In this document: positions 744-18,009 of the stretch, in pieces
Layout of the letters: every line of letters starts with the position of its first letter
Position numbering within the stretch: the first letter of the stretch is position 1
Source of the DNA: a virus
Reading direction: 5' to 3' (one strand)
Length of the DNA stretch: 28,426 nucleotides
Virus record (IMG/VR): IMGVR_UViG_3300027816_000322
Span: 1-28,426 of that record
The notes under the pieces: generated by a model
Seen by the model: only the letters and a program-made list of their open reading frames with translations
Told to the model about the DNA's origin: nothing
Databases searched by the model: none
Translations under genes and position numbers: made by a program

Positions 744-977
744 ATGAAGGTCATCCATCGCAAATTAGGCAAGGAGAAAGCCGATGGATTGGCGCACATT
801 GATAGCAACACCATTGAAATTGATGAGCGGTTAAAAGGCCGCTATCGCCTTGAAATCACCATACACGAAGCATTACACATACTATACCCGAAGGATAGCG
901 AAACGGCTATCATACGCAAGTCAAAGCGGCTCACGAAGGTTCTGTGGGAACAGGGGTATAGGAAAGTAGAAAAGTGA
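744..977 (+). CDS. Small HExxH putative metalloprotease-like protein (77 aa)
   Basis: I chose the ATG at 744 because it lies one base after the stop of the phosphoesterase gene; a longer reading from 663 would overlap that gene by 80 bases. The protein has a central IHEALHILYP segment (around residue 45), an HExxH zinc-binding pattern as in gluzincin or SprT-like proteases. It is very short (77 aa), with no obvious third ligand beyond nearby acidic residues, so proteolytic activity is uncertain. The N-terminal part (VIHRKLG...GLAHIDSNTIEID) resembles small phage proteins with this fold. Its TGA stop (975-977) touches the 3' end of a convergent tRNA gene. Confidence 0.65.
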   Translation: MKVIHRKLGKEKADGLAHIDSNTIEIDERLKGRYRLEITIHEALHILYPKDSETAIIRKSKRLTKVLWEQGYRKVEK

Positions 978-1047
978 CCACCGTACAGGACTCGAACCCG
1001 TATCACCCAGCTACAATGCAGGGGCTCTACCTTTGAGCTAACAGTGG
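977..1047 (-). tRNA. tRNA, probably Thr (anticodon TGT), compact and slightly degenerate
   Basis: Read on the minus strand, a 71-nt cloverleaf can be drawn: acceptor CCACTGT pairs with ACGGTGG (one G-T pair), the D arm is GCTC-AAAGGTA-GAGC, the T arm is ACGGG-TTCGAGT-CCTGT, and the discriminator is T. The anticodon loop reads ATTGTAG, giving TGT if T33 is placed normally. The anticodon stem (CCTGC/CTGGG) is weak, with a C-C mismatch and wobble pairs; an 8-base loop with CCCTG/CTGGG is the alternative. No CCA is encoded. The D and T arms make a tRNA very likely; the amino acid is less certain. Confidence 0.72.
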
Positions 1048-1652: not shown

Positions 1653-1670
1653 AACTTTTTAATTATTAGC

Positions 1671-1780
1671 AGTCAGGACAGGATTCGAACCTGTATAGGA
1701 TAATTGTTAAAGTCCATTTTCACATTGTACAATGCGTTATCCCTAAACTCGTCTGCGTCTACCAATTCCGCCACCTGACT
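1671..1780 (-). tRNA. tRNA-like gene of Leu type, oversized (110 nt), anticodon arm unclear
   Basis: On the minus strand the acceptor AGTCAGG pairs perfectly with CCTGACT, the T arm ACAGG-TTCGAAT-CCTGT is perfect, and the D arm GCGGAATTGGTAGACGC is the form typical of tRNA-Leu. The stretch between the D and T arms is about 61 nt, roughly 25 more than in a normal tRNA-Leu. No good 5-bp anticodon stem can be drawn. GGATAA and TTATCC can pair to form a long arm that contains a smaller hairpin (CATTG/CAATG). The first loop-like segment contains TTTAG, so anticodon TAG is possible, but I cannot fix it. It may be a type II tRNA with an insertion or a decayed gene. Confidence 0.55.
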
Positions 1781-2836: not shown

Positions 2837-3001
2837 TTAATTAAAAGATACAAGTTTTTTCTTAATTGTTTTTTTCAGATTATCCCAAGATGGCGAACTG
2901 AACATTTTGCCGTTAATAATGCAAGAATAATCGCTTTTACGGGTAGAGGGTGCGTAAAATTGTGTTACTTCAATGCCTCTGTAGATTTTAATCGTTGTCA
3001 T
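2837..3001 (-). CDS. Small basic hypothetical protein (54 aa)
   Basis: An ATG at 3001 opens a 54-codon frame: MTTIKIYRGIEVTQFYAPS at the N-terminus and WDNLKKTIKKKLVSFN at the C-terminus. The pattern looks like two or three beta strands followed by a lysine-rich helix. It has a well-placed promoter (3027-3059) with a short A/C-rich leader (AAAACCAAAAACC) directly before the ATG, and it ends 19 bases before the next leftward gene. This position supports a real gene despite its small size. No family is recognised. Confidence 0.62.
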   Translation of the reverse strand: MTTIKIYRGIEVTQFYAPSTRKSDYSCIINGKMFSSPSWDNLKKTIKKKLVSFN

Positions 3002-3026
3002 GGTTTTTGGTTTTGATTTGATATAT

Positions 3027-3059
3027 CAAAGATACGGGTATTTACTCACAACTTCCAAA
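3027..3059 (-). promoter_or_regulatory. Bacteroidota-type promoter for the 54-aa and 130-aa genes
   Basis: On the minus strand TTTG (3059-3056) is followed after 21 bases by TATCTTTG (3034-3027), an exact match to TAnnTTTG. The ATG at 3001 lies 26 bases downstream. The upstream element overlaps a 5-bp inverted repeat, CCAAA/TTTGG (3055-3068), that could be an operator. Confidence 0.6.
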
Positions 3060-3070
3060 TATTTTTGGAA

Positions 3071-3388
3071 TTATTTTTGCAATTTTGTTGCATTTTCTAC
3101 TAACTTGCTGATTTTCAATACTTCCGCATCGTCTAAATATGTCTTATTATTCACCCATTCATGCAGTTTTAACTTACGCAGGCCAACTTTGCGCTCAATA
3201 GCGGAGAGGTTGAACACATGATCAGAGGTCAGTAGCTGGTGTAGTTTGTCGGATTTAGTCATTATCTTCTGCTCCCTTTCCATTTGTTTGGCTTGTTCAT
3301 ATAAATCTGCAAGTTCTGAATGATGTGATTCATGTATCATATCAACAATCATTTCACAAAACCAATCAACTGCTGTCTGTTGTGCCAT
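3071..3388 (-). CDS. Two-module small protein: MAQQTAV module plus putative helix-turn-helix
   Basis: The 105-aa product has an N-terminal helical module, MAQQTAVDWFCEMIVDMIH up to EQAKQMEREQ, and a C-terminal part (FNLSAIERKVGLRKLKLHEW to LKISKLVENATKL) that reads like a small helix-turn-helix: a helix starting with AIERKVG, a turn, and a second helix. The first module is also present in the late gene at 12255-12596, with exact DNA matches of 20 bp (start region) and 31 bp (3268-3298 against 12477-12507). A DNA-binding or regulatory role is plausible for the C-terminal half but is inference. It is the third gene of the leftward operon. Confidence 0.65.
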   Translation of the reverse strand: MAQQTAVDWFCEMIVDMIHESHHSELADLYEQAKQMEREQKIMTKSDKLHQLLTSDHVFNLSAIERKVGLRKLKLHEWVNNKTYLDDAEVLKISKLVENATKLQK

Positions 3389-3401
3389 AGGTTATTTAGT
3401 T

Positions 3402-3662
3402 TTATGCGATATTTAACTGACTGTAATCAATCGTAAACACCGCTTCAATATATTCTATGTAGCAAGTACCGTCACTTTCATTCCCTTGAATGTAAACTTG
3501 TGTTCCTTTTTTAAGATGCCAATAACCATTTTCCCAGTGTTCACTTTCGGGTAAAAAATCTTCTTTAAGTGTTGCGAGTTTACCTTTAAAAACATCGCAT
3601 AACACGGGTTTGGCAAAATTGCCGTTCTGTTCCACTGCCGTTAGGTTATTCGCCATTTTCAT
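3402..3662 (-). CDS. Hypothetical protein (86 aa)
   Basis: Not recognised. The product (MKMANNLTAVEQNGNFAK to EAVFTIDYSQLNIA) appears mainly beta-stranded, with repeated short aromatic patches (HWENGYWHLKKGTQVYIQG), like a small SH3- or OB-like barrel; this fold guess is weak. Two starts are possible, at 3662 and 3656. Both overlap the end of the upstream gene (by 17 or 11 bases), so translation is probably coupled. No catalytic motif is seen. Confidence 0.65.
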   Translation of the reverse strand: MKMANNLTAVEQNGNFAKPVLCDVFKGKLATLKEDFLPESEHWENGYWHLKKGTQVYIQGNESDGTCYIEYIEAVFTIDYSQLNIA

Positions 3663-3855
3663 TAAAGTTTTCAGTTATAAATTCAAGTACTTCTTTAAAA
3701 GCAGCGATGCGGTTGACTGCCACCTTGCGGTAATAGTCGGCCATAGGTTTCTGATGGTTTTCTTCCCAATGGTCTTTGTTTTCCTCGGCTTCCTTTATCT
3801 TTTCATTAAGGAACTCAATAATCGGAAACGCTGGGTTGTCTGTGTTGTCTGTCAT
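3646..3855 (-). CDS. Hypothetical acidic helical protein (69 aa), first gene of leftward operon
   Basis: Not recognised. A 69-aa acidic protein, mostly helical: MTDNTDNPAFPIIEFLNEK, a charged helix KEAEENKDHWEENHQK, and a C-terminal helix RIAAFKEVLEFITENFN. The start at 3855 lies 21 bases after a promoter that matches the Bacteroidetes consensus exactly, so this is the leader gene of the early leftward operon. Genes in this position are often host-takeover proteins, but no family evidence supports a specific role. Confidence 0.68.
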   Translation of the reverse strand: MTDNTDNPAFPIIEFLNEKIKEAEENKDHWEENHQKPMADYYRKVAVNRIAAFKEVLEFITENFNENGE

Positions 3856-3875
3856 AAATTATAGGTTTGTTTCAG

Positions 3876-3906
3876 CAAAAATAAAAAATATTTTTGTAAT
3901 TCCAAA
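3876..3906 (-). promoter_or_regulatory. Leftward early promoter (TTTG-N19-TATTTTTG)
   Basis: On the minus strand TTTG (3906-3903), a gap of exactly 19 bases, and TATTTTTG (3883-3876) match the Bacteroidetes housekeeping promoter consensus. The first gene starts at 3855. It overlaps the rightward promoter at 3894-3922, so one bound regulator could control both. Confidence 0.75.
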
Positions 3907-3922
3907 TTATTTTGCATCTTTG
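3894..3922 (+). promoter_or_regulatory. Rightward early promoter for the replication operon
   Basis: TTG (3894-3896), 18 bases, then CATCTTTG (3915-3922), which is 7/8 to TAnnTTTG. The ATG of the AAA ATPase gene is at 3943, giving a leader of about 15 bases. It is back-to-back and interleaved with the leftward promoter. Confidence 0.6.
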
Positions 3923-3942
3923 ACTTCTAAACTCAATTATTT

Positions 3943-4845
3943 ATGCAACTACAAAAAGCACAACGGAAGCAGACAATGCTTCGGCTAAACCTGTCAGCCC
4001 CAAGTGGCGCAGGTAAAACCTATTCTGCCCTTTTACTAGCCAAGGGCCTTGTTGGAGATTGGGATAAAATCGCAGTAATTGACACGGAGAATGGTAGCGC
4101 ATCTCTGTATAGTCATTTAGGCGAATTTAACACCATACAACTTGAACCACCATTTACACCTGAACGCTACATCCAGGCACTTGACATTGTTATCAATGCT
4201 GGAATAAAATGCGTTATTATTGATTCATCCACTCACGAATGGAGTGGCCCGGGGGGATGCCTTGAAATCAATGATAAACTTGCCCAACTCAAATACAAAG
4301 GCAACGCATGGGCAGCGTGGTCAGAAACAACACCCCGACATGATGCCTTCGTATCCAAGGTACTTCACTCACCTTTACACGTTATTACCTGCACACGCTC
4401 AAAGATGGAAACTGTAATGGGCGAAGGTAAGAAGGTACATAAAGTAGGCATGAAAGATATTCAGCGTGATGGATGGGAGTACGAACTAACCGTATCTTTA
4501 ACACTTGATAGAGATACACACCTTGCAATTGCATCAAAAGATCGTACTAACCTATTTGAGGGTAAAGATGCTTTTATAATTACTGAAAAAACCGGTGAAA
4601 TGATACGCAAATGGTGCGATACGGGAGTAGCTGATATGCCTACACCACCCCCTGCCCCATCCCGTACAACCGTATCTGATAAAGTTTTCAAGGATGCCTT
4701 AAAGAAAGTTAAGGAAGGCGCAATGCTCAAAGATGGCTCAAAGTCAGTAGCTGCATGGCTCGTTGAAGATGTTGAACTAACTGAATCGCAGGTGGCCGCA
4801 TTAACTCAAGTATTAAACGAAGGAGGTGAAGATGGAACTAATTAA
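3943..4845 (+). CDS. AAA/RecA-like phage ATPase (recombination or replication)
   Basis: A 300-aa P-loop ATPase. Walker A is APSGAGKTYS (residues 19-28), an acidic VIDTENG follows the second strand, and Walker B is CVIIDSST (91-98). TPRHDAF and a sensor-like ITCTRSK segment follow. The layout matches the family of phage nucleotide-binding proteins often annotated as AAA family ATPase, related to RecA-like single-strand annealing or recombination helpers (Sak4-type); the exact subfamily is not certain. The C-terminal 80 residues are a charged helical region after a proline-rich linker (PTPPPAPSR). As first gene of the replication operon, upstream of ssb, nuclease and primase, a role in recombination-dependent replication is likely. 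Confidence 0.82.
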   Translation: MQLQKAQRKQTMLRLNLSAPSGAGKTYSALLLAKGLVGDWDKIAVIDTENGSASLYSHLGEFNTIQLEPPFTPERYIQALDIVINAGIKCVIIDSSTHEWSGPGGCLEINDKLAQLKYKGNAWAAWSETTPRHDAFVSKVLHSPLHVITCTRSKMETVMGEGKKVHKVGMKDIQRDGWEYELTVSLTLDRDTHLAIASKDRTNLFEGKDAFIITEKTGEMIRKWCDTGVADMPTPPPAPSRTTVSDKVFKDALKKVKEGAMLKDGSKSVAAWLVEDVELTESQVAALTQVLNEGGEDGTN

Positions 4846-14082: not shown

Positions 14083-14660
14083 TGGGCTACACACACGAAA
14101 CAACACGCATAATCGACCCCTACTTACCACACGTTCAATCGGTGGTAGATTTAGGAGCGCAGAATGATTACCGGGTACCATTGCCCGCACCTTACACCAA
14201 AGATTCATACTATGCCGGCAAAGACTACGAATCCATTGACATATCAGGGGAGAATGGAAGCACCCCGCTGGACTTATCCAAGCTACACAAATTCGAAAAG
14301 CAGTTTGATTTACTTGTGGATGCCGGCACATCCGAACACGTTGGAACAAACGGGAAGCACGACATCAAGGCCATATACAACTGCTGGAAGAACAAGCACA
14401 ACCTCGTTAAAGTGGGAGGATACATCATATCAGAAAACCCAAAAACAGGCAACTGGCCAGGACATGGATTCAACTACTACACAGAAGATTTCTACAAAAG
14501 ACTTGCTGAAATATGCGGTTATACTCTGCTTTCTGTCGGTAGCGTTGCTGCTATGGGCAATTATACAGATGGCTGGAATGTCTATTCGGTACTTCAAAAG
14601 AATAAAGAAACATTTTGCACGTTAGATGAATTTAAAGAGTGTGGTATTAAAACCAATTAA
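14082..14660 (+). CDS. SAM-dependent methyltransferase (class I)
   Basis: A 192-aa protein with the Rossmann methyltransferase pattern: HVQSVVDLGAQNDYR (SAM glycine-rich loop, residues 18-30), YAGKDYESIDISGENGSTPL with the acidic residue after the second strand, KQFDLLVDAGTSEHV (fourth strand, motif IV region), and LVKVGGYIISENPKTG. The GTSEHV segment is typical of small-molecule methyltransferases. The target is unknown; its place after the glycosyltransferase/FkbM group suggests sugar or surface modification. The end overlaps the terminase start by 35 bases. Confidence 0.78.
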   Translation: MGYTHETTRIIDPYLPHVQSVVDLGAQNDYRVPLPAPYTKDSYYAGKDYESIDISGENGSTPLDLSKLHKFEKQFDLLVDAGTSEHVGTNGKHDIKAIYNCWKNKHNLVKVGGYIISENPKTGNWPGHGFNYYTEDFYKRLAEICGYTLLSVGSVAAMGNYTDGWNVYSVLQKNKETFCTLDEFKECGIKTN

Positions 14661-16608
14661 AGCAACCCCGGTATTCTTTGAGAATCTCAAAGCGTATAAA
14701 GGCCCGGCACCCATTATCTGCAATGAGGGAGGAAGCCGTAGTTCGAAGTCATACTCCGAAGTGCAGTTATTGGTACTGATAGCAATGGATGAGCCTGGCA
14801 AACGTATAAGCATCGTATCGCACTCCTTACCCCACATCAAACGTGGAGCATATCGTGATTTTAGGCAGATTATGACTGATTGGGGCATTTGGGATGATGA
14901 CTCATTCTCCTTCACCGACTTTGTGTATAAGTTCCGCAATGGCAGTTATATTGAACTATTCGGACTTGAAGATGAGGGGAAAGCACGTGGACCGGGCAGG
15001 GATATACTATTCATCAATGAAGCGAACCTGATTAGAAAGTCATTATTTGACCAGTTGGCAATGCGGACAACGGGCAAGATATTCCTCGATTGGAACCCTG
15101 CCGACTTCGTTTCTTGGGTGTACGATGTAGCCGACAATCCGAATAACGCTAGGATACATTCTACCTATTTAAACAATTTACCGAACCTTTCCCCAATGCA
15201 GATAGGCATCATTGAGGGGTATAAGAACCTACCCGATGACTTTATGTGGAAGGTGTACGGCTTGGGGGAACGTGGGGCAGCAAAGGAGATAATTTACACA
15301 CAATGGCAAATAACCGACCAACTGCCCGAAGGTGGTGATGTGTTCTATGGGTTGGACTTTGGATATGTTCACCCATTGGCACTTGTTAAGGTGGTACATT
15401 ACGAAGGTGCTAACTATGTGCAACAATTACTATACAAGTCAGGGTTAACCCCATCCGAAATGATAAAGGAGGTGAAAGATTACATCCATGACCGCAAACC
15501 CGTGTACTGCGATGCGGCAGAGCCGAAAAGCATTGAGGAACTATACAGAGGCGGTATCAATGCGCAACAAGCGAATAAGGAAGTATGGCCGGGGATACTG
15601 AAAGTGAAATCATATCCATTGTACGTTCACAAAGATAGCAGGGAACTAATCAGGGAACTGCAATCGTATAAGTGGAAGAAGGACAAGAATGACAATGTTG
15701 TGGATGAACCTGTTAAAGAATTTGACGATGCATGTTTTGTAGGCGAAACACAAATAACAACAATTAATGGTCAAAAAAGAATTGATGAAATAAAAGTAGG
15801 CGATTTAGTATTAACAAGGAATGGGTATAAAAAAGTGTATGCCGTGCATAATAACGGAGTGAAACAAGTGCAAAAGTATTTGATGCAATTCGATACGCAT
15901 TCGGTATATTTGCATTGTACTTCAAATCATTTAATTTATACTCAAAACGAATGGACAAAGATTTCGAAATTAGAATTAATGGAAACGGTAAGCCATATCA
16001 AACATTTAATGGCAGACCATTCACATTACATCCCGGAGCAAGGTATTTCACAAATGGGCCACTACACATGCATTGGTACGTTTGGGAACACTACAACGGG
16101 AAAAGAGAAAAAGGGTATCATATTCATCATAAAGATGGGAATTCATGGAATAATCAAATATCTAACCTTGAAAAAATCAAATCCTCTACACATCTTAGTA
16201 AGCATATTAAACAAAGGATTAAAGACAACCCTGAAAAGTTCAAAGAGTTCTATGCAAAAGGAATTGAAGCAGCAAAGCAATGGCATAAAAGTGCAGAAGG
16301 TATCGAATGGCACAAACAACATGCAGCTAAAAACAACTTCGGGAAACCATTATCTATTGAATCAAAATGCATGCATTGCGGAAATGAATACATCGCAAAA
16401 ACAAAGCATTCAAAGTTCTGCCATCCAAACTGCAAAGCTAAAGAACTTCGAGTGCGTTACAAGTTGGCAGGAAAGAGTTTACGACCTAAGCGTTGAAGAT
16501 GAGCATGAGTATTTTGCTAACGGGATATTAGTCCATAATTGCGATGCTATGAGATATGCCATCTTCACCCATCTACACAAGCCACAATTCCAGGTAGCCG
16601 TTTGGTAA
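14626..16608 (+). CDS. terL: Large terminase subunit, interrupted by an intein
   Basis: The extein is 391 aa (residues 1-369 plus 639-660). Its ATPase domain has Walker A GGSRSSKSYSE (35-45), Walker B DILFINEAN (126-134) and FLDWNP (153-158). Its nuclease domain has GLDFG (D244), VYCDAAEP (D296) and CDAMRYA (D640), the three acidic metal ligands. The intein (residues 370-638) sits between FDDA and CDAMRYA, one residue before the third catalytic aspartate, so no functional nuclease forms until it splices out. After splicing the protein packages phage DNA into the prohead. The ATG at 14626 overlaps the previous gene by 35 bases; a GTG at 14641 is the alternative start. Confidence 0.9.
   Translation: MNLKSVVLKPIKATPVFFENLKAYKGPAPIICNEGGSRSSKSYSEVQLLVLIAMDEPGKRISIVSHSLPHIKRGAYRDFRQIMTDWGIWDDDSFSFTDFVYKFRNGSYIELFGLEDEGKARGPGRDILFINEANLIRKSLFDQLAMRTTGKIFLDWNPADFVSWVYDVADNPNNARIHSTYLNNLPNLSPMQIGIIEGYKNLPDDFMWKVYGLGERGAAKEIIYTQWQITDQLPEGGDVFYGLDFGYVHPLALVKVVHYEGANYVQQLLYKSGLTPSEMIKEVKDYIHDRKPVYCDAAEPKSIEELYRGGINAQQANKEVWPGILKVKSYPLYVHKDSRELIRELQSYKWKKDKNDNVVDEPVKEFDDACFVGETQITTINGQKRIDEIKVGDLVLTRNGYKKVYAVHNNGVKQVQKYLMQFDTHSVYLHCTSNHLIYTQNEWTKISKLELMETVSHIKHLMADHSHYIPEQGISQMGHYTCIGTFGNTTTGKEKKGIIFIIKMGIHGIIKYLTLKKSNPLHILVSILNKGLKTTLKSSKSSMQKELKQQSNGIKVQKVSNGTNNMQLKTTSGNHYLLNQNACIAEMNTSQKQSIQSSAIQTAKLKNFECVTSWQERVYDLSVEDEHEYFANGILVHNCDAMRYAIFTHLHKPQFQVAVW
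15733..16539 (+). mobile_element. Intein in the large terminase (269 aa), hosting an HNH gene in another frame
   Basis: The intein begins at Cys370 with CFVGETQITTINGQKRIDEI (block A, with VGDLVL next), block B contains LHCTSNHLIYT with its histidine (H435), and it ends DEHEYFANGILVHN before C+1 (blocks F and G: the H-N dipeptide and the following Cys). All residues for protein splicing are present. The region between, residues ~452-605, has no intein-like or known sequence in this frame: it is rich in K, S, T and N, and looks like an out-of-frame reading of the HNH gene. It is nonetheless free of stops, so the intein can still be made as one chain. Confidence 0.92.
15951..16496 (+). CDS. HNH homing endonuclease nested out of frame inside the intein
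   Basis: In frame 3 (the intein is frame 1) an ATG at 15951 opens a 181-aa protein: NGKPYQTFNGRPFTLHPGAR, then WYVWEHYNGKREKGYHIHHK (HH 59-60), GNSWNNQISNLEKI with the HNH asparagines, and H81; a zinc finger follows with CMHCGNEY (C140, C143) and FCHPNC (C157, C161). This is the standard order of stand-alone phage HNH homing endonucleases. It stops at 16496, in the C-terminal splicing block. The leader (TTAATTTATACTCAAAACGA) is A/T-rich as expected for host translation. It likely cuts intein-less terminase genes and so drives spread of the whole element. The last ~18 residues read through intein code and may be accidental. Confidence 0.88.
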   Translation: MDKDFEIRINGNGKPYQTFNGRPFTLHPGARYFTNGPLHMHWYVWEHYNGKREKGYHIHHKDGNSWNNQISNLEKIKSSTHLSKHIKQRIKDNPEKFKEFYAKGIEAAKQWHKSAEGIEWHKQHAAKNNFGKPLSIESKCMHCGNEYIAKTKHSKFCHPNCKAKELRVRYKLAGKSLRPKR

Positions 16609-16628
16609 GGTAATTCGGTGTAATTTTG
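16601..16628 (+). promoter_or_regulatory. Weak candidate promoter before the portal gene
   Basis: TTTG (16601-16604), 16 bases, then TAATTTTG (16621-16628), an exact TAnnTTTG. The spacing is shorter than the usual 19, so this may be a secondary promoter for the head genes. The portal ATG is at 16645. Confidence 0.4.
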
Positions 16629-16644
16629 TTACTAAATCTTTAAT

Positions 16645-18009
16645 ATGGGGGTATTTGATTTTCTTAAGCGCAAAGCTGCACCTATAAAATCACCTGTTCA
16701 AATTTCGGTAGAGCGTGGTCTGTTAACTTGGGACGGGCAGAACCAAGCCGAAATCGTGAAAGATAGTTACATGGGCAATGATCTTGTCTATGCTATCATT
16801 ACACTAATTACGCAAAAAGCGAAGGTTGCTCCGTGGGGAGTGTACCGGATAAAGAATAAGGATGCCGCTAAAAGATACAAGGCAATGCTCCTGGACCGTG
16901 AGCCGGATATGCGGAAGCTATACGAACTCAAAGAACAAGCGTTAGAGCCGTATAAGGATGTGAGGTTAGAAGAAATGCTGAAATACCCGAACAGTGATGA
17001 TACATGGGCCGACATCATCGAACAATGGGTAGGGTTTAAGAAGATAACGGGCAACGCATTCATGTACGCAAAGATGGTTGGTGAAGCATCGGTGAACAAG
17101 GGTAAGCCGTTAGAGGTTTATATGCTTCCTAGTCAGTACATGGCAGTTAAGGTGGATATTGACCAATTCCCACCAAAGAAAGTGGCCTATCAACTTTACT
17201 ACGGGCAGTACATCCCGTTCAATACGCTGGAAATTCTGCATGATAAGTATTTCAATCCAGAATGGTCAGCAACGGGAGGGCAGTTATACGGCCTTTCACC
17301 GCTACGTGCTGCAAGTAAGGTGCTGACCCGTTCAAATTCATCAAAAGAAGCAAGCGTAGCAATGTTTGACAACATGGGGCCGCTAGGTGTGCTATACATG
17401 GACGATGTACGCTTCGACCCATTGTCCGGTGCAAGTCAGGCACAGGCACTAAAGCAGTCAATATCTACGAATACGGGAGCCGGGAAGTACGGAAGTACTG
17501 CAGTATCGGGTTACAAAGTAGGATGGGCGCAAATGGGCTTGCCGGCGAAAGATTTGCAGCTAATAGAATCAGAGAAATGGGATAAAGAAGCACTTTGCTC
17601 AATTTACGGTGTACCACCCGTACTGCTTGGAAGCCAAGAAGCTGCGACATACAACAACATGAAAGAAGCGGAGAAATCTCTCACCCTTCGTGCCGTTCTT
17701 CCCGAACTTGTCGCAATCCGTGATAACATTAACCGCAAGTTGTACTCCGATTGGGGTTACAAGGACACAGATATTTGCGTTGACTTCGATATGACCGTAT
17801 ATCAGGAGTTGGAAGCGAATAGAGGTGAACAAGCTACATGGCTTAATACCGCATGGTGGTTAACTCCCGAACAAAAGTTAAAGATTCAGGGCCTTGCACC
17901 TGACCCGAATGTTCCTATAGAAGATTACCAAAAGTTATACATCCCTTCTGGGTTGCAGCCGTTAGATGATTTCACCAACTTACCTGTTGATGTACCGCCA
18001 GCTCTATAA
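16645..18009 (+). CDS. Portal protein (HK97 family)
   Basis: A 454-aa protein with the features of HK97-type portals: N-terminal VFDFLKRK and YMGNDLVYAIITLITQKAKV, a core PSQYMAVKVD and LYGLSPLRAASKVLTRSN, VPPVLLGSQEAATYNNMKEA (typical of the portal clip region) and LVAIRDNINRKLYSDW near the end. It forms the 12-subunit ring at one vertex through which DNA is packaged and released. It follows the terminase by 36 bases and overlaps the start of the minor head gene by 20 bases, which is the standard order in this class of phage. Confidence 0.92.
   Translation: MGVFDFLKRKAAPIKSPVQISVERGLLTWDGQNQAEIVKDSYMGNDLVYAIITLITQKAKVAPWGVYRIKNKDAAKRYKAMLLDREPDMRKLYELKEQALEPYKDVRLEEMLKYPNSDDTWADIIEQWVGFKKITGNAFMYAKMVGEASVNKGKPLEVYMLPSQYMAVKVDIDQFPPKKVAYQLYYGQYIPFNTLEILHDKYFNPEWSATGGQLYGLSPLRAASKVLTRSNSSKEASVAMFDNMGPLGVLYMDDVRFDPLSGASQAQALKQSISTNTGAGKYGSTAVSGYKVGWAQMGLPAKDLQLIESEKWDKEALCSIYGVPPVLLGSQEAATYNNMKEAEKSLTLRAVLPELVAIRDNINRKLYSDWGYKDTDICVDFDMTVYQELEANRGEQATWLNTAWWLTPEQKLKIQGLAPDPNVPIEDYQKLYIPSGLQPLDDFTNLPVDVPPAL

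What the first reader, a model, noticed from the sequence alone, without database searches (positions are those of the whole stretch)
15733..16539. HNH homing endonuclease encoded out of frame within a terminase intein
The terminase reading frame (frame 1) contains complete N- and C-terminal intein splicing blocks, but the ~160-codon middle makes no sense as protein in that frame. In frame 3 the same DNA encodes a convincing HNH endonuclease with its own ATG (15951) and zinc finger. The intein frame stays free of stops for the whole ~540 bases, which is unlikely by chance (order of 10^-4 for random sequence of equal base content; higher or lower with this composition). So one stretch must serve as a splicing linker in one frame and an enzyme in another. 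Known inteins carry the endonuclease in the same frame, as one chain. A free HNH gene seems to have invaded a small intein and been kept because it landed without breaking the terminase frame.
Basis: partly seen in the sequence, partly recalled or inferred. Interest (0 to 1): 0.93.

Follow-up and report, generated by a model that had tools for sequence, protein, structure and literature searches.

The report
Homing enzyme hidden in intein's frame
In this phage, one stretch of DNA is read two ways: as part of a self-removing segment (intein) of the DNA-packaging enzyme, and, shifted by two bases, as a separate DNA-cutting 'homing' enzyme; well over a hundred related phage and archaeal sequences share the arrangement, and it has largely escaped annotation.

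Summary
The terminase large-subunit gene (14626-16608) carries a complete intein (15733-16539, 269 codons). An HNH_3 endonuclease gene (ATG 15951, TGA 16494-16496) lies inside it at offset +2. It is not an indel artefact: six other contigs carry the same layout without any indel, one of them identical over the intein.

Selection switches frame exactly at the overlap. Outside it the intein frame is conserved (omega about 0.2). Inside it the HNH frame is conserved (about 0.18) and the intein frame is not (1.5-2.0).

I found 138 such loci (96 distinct inteins) in phage contigs, isolates, prophages and a haloarchaeal plasmid. All are at offset +2 and none has a stop in the intein frame. For 42 of them 127 stops are expected from synonymous shuffling. 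Non-nested relatives of the same HNH show 123 against 122 expected. Start and stop codons of the nested gene are mostly built from conserved intein codons. Nearest terminases (95-96%) have a clean empty site.

Best reading: an intein whose homing endonuclease is overprinted rather than fused. Splicing, HNH translation and cleavage are not shown. ShiLan (2025) is the nearest published case, but has no splicing domain.

The parts
14626..15732 (+). Terminase large subunit, N-extein (ATPase and most of the nuclease domain)
   Evidence: PF04466 Terminase_3 E 1.2e-8, PF17288 Terminase_3C E 1e-3; nearest intein-less homologues 95-96% identical over 369 aa
15733..15948 (+). Intein N-terminal splicing region (Cys1, block B T63-x-x-H66), intein frame only
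   Evidence: PF14890, TIGR01445; C1, T63, H66 invariant in 33 inteins; omega about 0.2 in this frame; pLDDT 87-97
15951..16496 (+). Nested HNH homing endonuclease gene, offset +2 to the intein (ATG 15951-15953, TGA 16494-16496, 181 aa)
   Evidence: PF13392 E 2.6e-11; omega about 0.18 in this frame; model pLDDT 91, best PDB match I-HmuI
15951..16440 (+). Overlap: read in the intein frame it is a stop-free linker of about 163 residues with no conserved sequence
   Evidence: Intein-frame omega 1.5-2.0, changes concentrated at frame-1 codon position 2 = HNH codon position 3; linker pLDDT mostly 37-79
15951..15954 (+). HNH start codon, made from the intein Glu-Trp codons (ga-ATG-G)
   Evidence: In 80 of 94 nested loci the HNH start overlaps an intein TGG (Trp) codon
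16125..16154 (+). HNH catalytic motif (invariant H59, H60, N68)
   Evidence: Invariant in 31 relatives, nested and free
16368..16433 (+). HNH C-terminal Cys4 zinc knuckle (C140, C143, C157, C161)
   Evidence: Invariant in 31 relatives
16441..16539 (+). Intein C-terminal splicing region (blocks F and G, VYDLSVEDEHEYFANGILVHN); its first 56 nt overlap the HNH tail
   Evidence: TIGR01443 E 3.9e-8; intein-frame omega 0.3-0.55 in the shared tail and 0-0.2 beyond it
16494..16496 (+). HNH stop codon TGA, made from the Val-Glu codons of intein block F (gt-TGA-a)
   Evidence: In 44 of 96 loci the stop is made by Tyr-Asp or Tyr-Asn codons (block F); 7 loci use Val-Glu
16540..16608 (+). Terminase C-extein, Cys+1 then DAMRYAIF...
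   Evidence: Empty-site homologues read DDA|LDAMRYAIF; here DDA|intein|CDAMRYAIF

Best explanation
A mobile intein in the nuclease-domain active-site motif of the phage terminase, whose homing endonuclease is not fused into the intein chain but overprinted on it. Shown by sequence: the terminase ORF is one open frame through N-extein, IntN, a stop-free linker, IntC and C-extein; the same DNA, shifted by +2, encodes a complete HNH protein under its own purifying selection, with an ATG and stop embedded in intein codons. Inferred: the intein frame splices post-translationally and discards the linker. HNH is made as a separate protein by internal initiation at 15951, cuts terminase alleles that lack the intein near the DDA|LDAMRY codons, and repair copies the whole 807-bp element in (homing). 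Also inferred: the HNH came from the family of terL-linked free-standing HNH genes, and the +2 frame was kept because it is the only shift in which this HNH's codons rarely produce stops in the intein frame.
For: Complete splicing motifs and Hint fold: Pfam, NCBIfam, Foldseek top hit gp41-1 intein, E 7e-8, TM 0.81 by target length. Reciprocal switch of selection at the overlap edges, repeated in most of 14 pairs. 138 nested loci, 96 distinct inteins, 0 stops. Expected 127 stops against 0 in 42 loci, and no deficit in non-nested relatives. The third frame would carry about 19 stops in the window's HNH. The ATG is present in 91 of 96, the upstream HNH-frame stop lies a median of 4 codons before it, and in-phase slippery sites are not conserved (39 of 96), which favours internal initiation over frameshifting. 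Homing signature: nearest terminases (95-96% identical) are empty at the exact site, with Leu to Cys at +1, and the intein is patchily distributed. One locus, L039, keeps the intein frame but has a broken HNH, as expected if only splicing is essential.
Against: No splicing, translation or cleavage data. No Shine-Dalgarno motif before the ATG (SD-like sequence in only 10 loci). The structural match of the HNH to I-HmuI is modest (E 5e-3, TM 0.27). The linker is predicted as low-confidence helix, so a fold of its own is not excluded. All relatives were found by similarity, so the uniform +2 offset partly reflects shared descent. Insertion sites differ by a few codons among families, so the exact cleavage site is not fixed by these data.
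Confidence: 0.82

Rival explanations
1. HNH is made by a -1 programmed ribosomal frameshift, as a terminase-IntN-HNH fusion, rather than by internal initiation.
For: The HNH frame is the -1 frame of the intein, the usual direction of frameshifting. In-phase slippery heptamers exist in 39 of 96 loci and two heptamers of the wider pattern in the window, at 16098 and 16110.
Against: Slippery sites are not conserved, and those in the window lie inside the HNH domain, after its first 49 residues. In most loci an HNH-frame stop sits a median of 4 codons before the ATG, so upstream slips would terminate. ATG is present in 91 of 96 and N-terminal residues are conserved straight after it.
Confidence: 0.07
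2. The HNH is a decaying or passive passenger: the selection on it is past, and it no longer drives homing.
For: L039 has a broken HNH with an intact intein; mini-inteins without HNH exist (L027; two in L019).
Against: HNH-frame omega of 0.16-0.28 in most pairs of relatives with enough changes to judge (one pair, L096-L099, 0.5); catalytic and zinc residues invariant; 1 of 96 broken.
Confidence: 0.08
3. The insert is removed as RNA (a group I intron with an HNH ORF), and the apparent intein motifs are incidental.
For: HNH genes are common in phage group I introns; a relative in Exiguobacterium phage vB_EauM-23 (L080) interrupts terL and may be intronic.
Against: No Rfam match in 15600-16700, even with permissive settings. 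Complete splicing blocks under amino-acid selection and a Hint fold. The frame is kept open in all 96.
Confidence: 0.01
4. Chance overlap or sequencing indels.
For: A single sequence could mislead.
Against: Identical layout in independent contigs and 96 distinct inteins, with stop counts far from chance and matching controls.
Confidence: 0.005

Closest known systems
ShiLan element: out-of-frame HNH in a mycobacteriophage DNA methylase (Arsenault, Gosselin and Gogarten 2025, PMC11855218)
   Same: HNH gene in the +2 frame of an insert that keeps the host gene open; patchy, homing-like distribution; own start and stop inside the insert
   Different: ShiLan has no splicing domain and is thought to stay in the protein; different HNH (31% identity over 32 aa only); non-essential methylase. 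Here complete splicing domains flank the HNH and the host gene is terL
Canonical large inteins with in-frame endonuclease, e.g. the HNH_3 intein in dCTP deaminase of cyanophage CL131 (PMC6293099)
   Same: Hint splicing domain with an endonuclease between blocks B and F; HNH_3 domain
   Different: There the HNH is described in the same ORF as the intein; here in another frame as its own protein
Split inteins with an endonuclease gene between the halves ('fractured genes', Dassa et al. 2009; listed in the references of PMC10448857, original not readable here)
   Same: Splicing halves around a separately coded endonuclease. Relatives of this very HNH sit so in terL of Lactobacillus phage CL2, Staphylococcus borealis, Fructilactobacillus and two IMG/VR contigs
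   Different: In the window the intein is one continuous chain, with no stop
HNH homing endonucleases of phage group I introns (I-HmuI)
   Same: HNH nuclease, best structural match; gene nested in a self-removing insert
   Different: No intron found; removal is predicted at protein level
gp41-1-type inteins
   Same: Nearest solved splicing fold
   Different: gp41-1 is used as a split intein; no nested gene
WHO elements of yeast FBA1 (PMC7282813)
   Same: Relatives L047 and L088 lie behind terL with a second copy of its 3' end, as WHO genes do
   Different: The window's element is an intein insert, not a 3'-end replacement

Membership tests
Intein | Nucleophile at residue 1, block B TxxH, terminal Asn, Cys/Ser/Thr at +1 | tested here: met
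   C1, T63, H66, N269 invariant; Cys+1 here, Cys or Ser in the relatives
Intein | Hint fold | tested here: met
   Foldseek: gp41-1 intein 6qaz, E 7e-8, TM 0.81 by target length
Intein | In-frame insertion at a conserved site, absent from close homologues | tested here: met
   Exact empty site DDA|LDAMRY in terminases 95-96% identical
Intein | Excision and extein ligation | not testable with these tools
   Needs expression of the precursor
Canonical large intein (endonuclease as a domain of the intein chain) | Endonuclease in the same reading frame | tested here: not met
   HNH at offset +2; 0 in-frame among the related loci
HNH homing endonuclease (HNH_3) | HNH motif and fold | tested here: met
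   PF13392 E 2.6e-11; invariant H59, H60, N68; modest match to I-HmuI
HNH homing endonuclease (HNH_3) | Site-specific cleavage of the uninvaded allele | not testable with these tools
   Only the patchy distribution and the clean empty site support it
ShiLan-type out-of-frame HNH insert | HNH in another frame of a stop-free insert | tested here: met
   ShiLan read directly
ShiLan-type out-of-frame HNH insert | No splicing domain | tested here: not met
   Complete splicing domain here
Split intein / fractured gene | Intein halves on separate polypeptides | tested here: not met
   One open frame 14626-16608
Group I intron with HNH ORF | Intron RNA structure | tested here: not met
   No Rfam match in 15600-16700 up to E 1

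The most novel reading that the evidence does not exclude
A widespread, undescribed class of inteins in phages and archaeal viruses that carry their homing endonuclease as an overprinted gene. The nested gene borrows its start and stop from conserved intein codons, and the arrangement is a stepping stone between mini-inteins, free-standing homing genes and split inteins: one nonsense mutation in the passive frame plus a start for IntC would split it.
Probability: 0.6. Interest if true: 0.88.

Novelty: new variant of a known kind. Interest (0 to 1): 0.78.

Why it matters
Inteins are normally explained as one chain with a fused endonuclease. Here dozens of distinct inteins carry the endonuclease in another frame. 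That gives a concrete route by which a free homing gene can gain a harmless seat in an essential gene, and by which split inteins, used widely as protein-ligation tools, could arise. It also means annotation pipelines miss the nuclease (for example RefSeq 'Hint domain-containing protein' WP_205250754.1), and it is a large natural set of overlapping genes in which both frames can be measured.

Tried and rejected
(a) Sequencing indels: rejected. (b) Group I intron: rejected for the window. (c) Conserved frameshift site: not found. (d) A sign that the intein-frame linker avoids proline and glycine proved an artefact of how stops were removed from the denominator; raw counts equal expectation. (e) Profile scans with the full HNH alignment failed for lack of conserved blocks; a closer subset worked. 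(f) Insertion direction from the HNH tree: nested and other forms interleave (10-11 changes, at least 6 on well-supported branches; quick tree), root unknown, so no direction is claimed. (g) A first automatic search for duplicated terL ends returned nothing; direct alignment found two clear cases. (h) Mutaforma13 was fetched by a wrong accession while looking for ShiLan. (i) The preprint most likely to overlap (Gosselin et al. 2025, bioRxiv 2025.01.02.630785, 'non-canonical architecture') and Dassa 2009 are not held.

Full report
WHAT IS THERE. The window carries a phage terminase large-subunit gene (14626-16608) followed by a portal gene. Codons 370-638 of the terminase form an intein (15733-16539): Cys1, block B T-x-x-H, blocks F and G ending HN, then Cys+1. 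Inside it, at offset +2, runs an HNH_3 endonuclease gene, ATG 15951 to TGA 16496 (PF13392, E 2.6e-11), with the catalytic His-His...Asn and a Cys4 zinc knuckle. The intein frame has no stop across the overlap, while the third frame has 20.

NOT AN ARTEFACT. IMG/VR contig L002 has the identical intein. L003-L007, five further contigs, share one intein that differs from the window's by 105 substitutions and no indel; L008 and L009 differ by 112, again without indels. All keep both frames.

SELECTION IN BOTH FRAMES. Between the window and L003 or L008, 61-69 changes fall in 15951-16440. Of these, 40-43 sit at the second codon position of the intein frame, which is the third of the HNH frame. There omega is about 0.18 for HNH and 1.7-2.0 for the intein frame (1.5 for L003 against L008). 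In 15733-15948 and 16497-16539 it is the reverse: about 0.3 or less for the intein frame and above 1.4 for the other. The same switch appears in most of 14 pairs tested in this and other families. So the splicing ends are constrained as intein, the middle as HNH, and the middle of the intein frame is a passive linker. An AlphaFold model agrees: splicing parts at pLDDT 85-97, linker mostly at 37-79. Its best PDB match is the gp41-1 intein (E 7e-8, TM 0.81). The HNH model (pLDDT 91) best matches the homing endonuclease I-HmuI, weakly (E 5e-3).

OPEN BY SELECTION, NOT LUCK. Shuffling synonymous codons of the window's HNH leaves the intein frame open with P = 0.005. Over 42 nested loci 127 stops are expected and none is seen, while the third frame shows 963 against 929. 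Seventeen relatives of the same HNH that are not nested show 123 stops against 122 expected in the equivalent frame. Repeating it on 95 distinct nested inteins gave 200 expected, 0 seen. The test also suggests why the offset is always +2: in the other shift an HNH of this make-up would put about 10-40 stops into the intein.

HOW COMMON. Scans with the intein and HNH proteins and profile-based sorting gave 138 nested loci (96 distinct inteins), all at offset +2 and none with a stop. No in-frame case was seen. At least 543 HNH relatives exist in IMG/VR (not all sorted). Nested cases include isolates Tetrasphaera phage TJE1, Rhodobacteraceae phage LS06-2018-MD07 and Acinetobacter phage Highwayman, whose HNH is unannotated; contigs of Bacteroides, Prevotellaceae and Anaerolineae bins; and a plasmid of the archaeon Halobacterium sp. 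GSL-19, annotated only as a Hint-domain protein. Nine of ten divergent hosts tested match a terminase Pfam model, one of them weakly; the tenth, L050, matched none.

FIT OF THE NESTED GENE. The HNH has an ATG in 91 of 96 loci. In 80 of 94 the start overlaps an intein Trp codon (xxA-TGG). The stop is made by the Tyr-Asp or Tyr-Asn codons of intein block F in 44 of 96; in the window Tyr is TAC, so the next chance, Val-Glu (gt-TGA-a), is used. The gene thus runs from just after block B to block F, the seat of the in-frame endonuclease in canonical inteins. An HNH-frame stop lies a median of four codons before the ATG, and slippery sites are not conserved, so internal initiation is more likely than frameshifting; neither is shown.

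MOBILITY. Terminases 95-96% identical to the window's lack the insert: GATGCA|CTT-GAT-GCT (DDA|LDA) becomes GATGCA|intein|TGC-GAT-GCT, the new Cys being the +1 residue needed for splicing. In the sampled relatives most sites are empty. L096 and L099 have almost identical intein ends within terminases about 10% different nearby, and an HNH core that differs strongly, so HNH and splicing parts can have separate histories. L039 has a broken HNH but an intact intein. Distances of splicing domain, HNH and extein correlate (r about 0.67-0.70), so the association is also inherited.

OTHER ARRANGEMENTS OF THE SAME HNH AT terL. Free genes directly behind terL (PAE1, SN1, FBPa53, Poludnitsa). Split inteins with the HNH gene between IntN and IntC (Lactobacillus phage CL2, Staphylococcus borealis L086, L137, L170, Fructilactobacillus ixorae L254); in the four loci where frames were compared the HNH keeps offset +2 to IntC. 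HNH behind terL with a second copy of the terL 3' end starting at the DxxRY codons (L047, L088), like yeast WHO elements (PMC7282813). The tree of 100 HNHs mixes these forms. Together they point to one family of terL-targeting homing genes with several ways of not killing the gene; that the intein site is the cut site is inference.

KNOWN OR NEW. The closest report is the ShiLan element (PMC11855218): an HNH out of frame in a methylase, explicitly without splicing domains. I read ShiLan itself: its HNH is also at offset +2, but shares only the core HNH motif with this one. Mycobacteriophage TerL inteins described earlier lie in the ATPase domain (PMC5050341), not here. Hence 'new variant of a known kind'.

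Noticed in passing
L073 1502-2771 (Lactobacillus phage CL2, KR905067.1); L086, L137, L170, L254: terL is split: terL-IntN ORF, separate HNH gene, then IntC-terL-C ORF with C+1 and DxxRY, which is not annotated in CL2 or Fructilactobacillus. Looks like a split intein flanking an endonuclease.
   Followed up: partly
L047 (also L049) 2816-2941 and 3488-3613; L088 around 2866 and 3538-3595: HNH gene behind terL flanked by a second copy of the terL 3' end that starts at the DxxRY codons, as in WHO/FBA1 homing.
   Followed up: partly
L019 (IMGVR_UViG_3300000234_000240) 2970-4046: terL of a phage reading TGA as Gly (26 in-frame TGA, at glycine positions where relatives can be compared; code 25) carries two separate mini-inteins without HNH.
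   Followed up: partly
L080 2260-3280 (Exiguobacterium phage vB_EauM-23): terL stops shortly after NNH; CDATRYA resumes about 0.9 kb later behind an HNH gene of the same family. No intein blocks; a P7-like AAGATAGTCC suggests a group I intron, but Rfam found none.
   Followed up: partly
L096 and L099, intein positions 240-480: Nearly identical intein ends around an HNH core with up to 24 differences per 60 bases: mosaic exchange of the endonuclease inside the intein.
   Followed up: partly
L039 1079-1609: HNH frame broken by a stop while the intein frame is intact.
   Followed up: yes
window 977-1047 and 1670-1780, minus strand: Two tRNA matches by Rfam; the second spans 111 bases, unusually long.
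   Followed up: no
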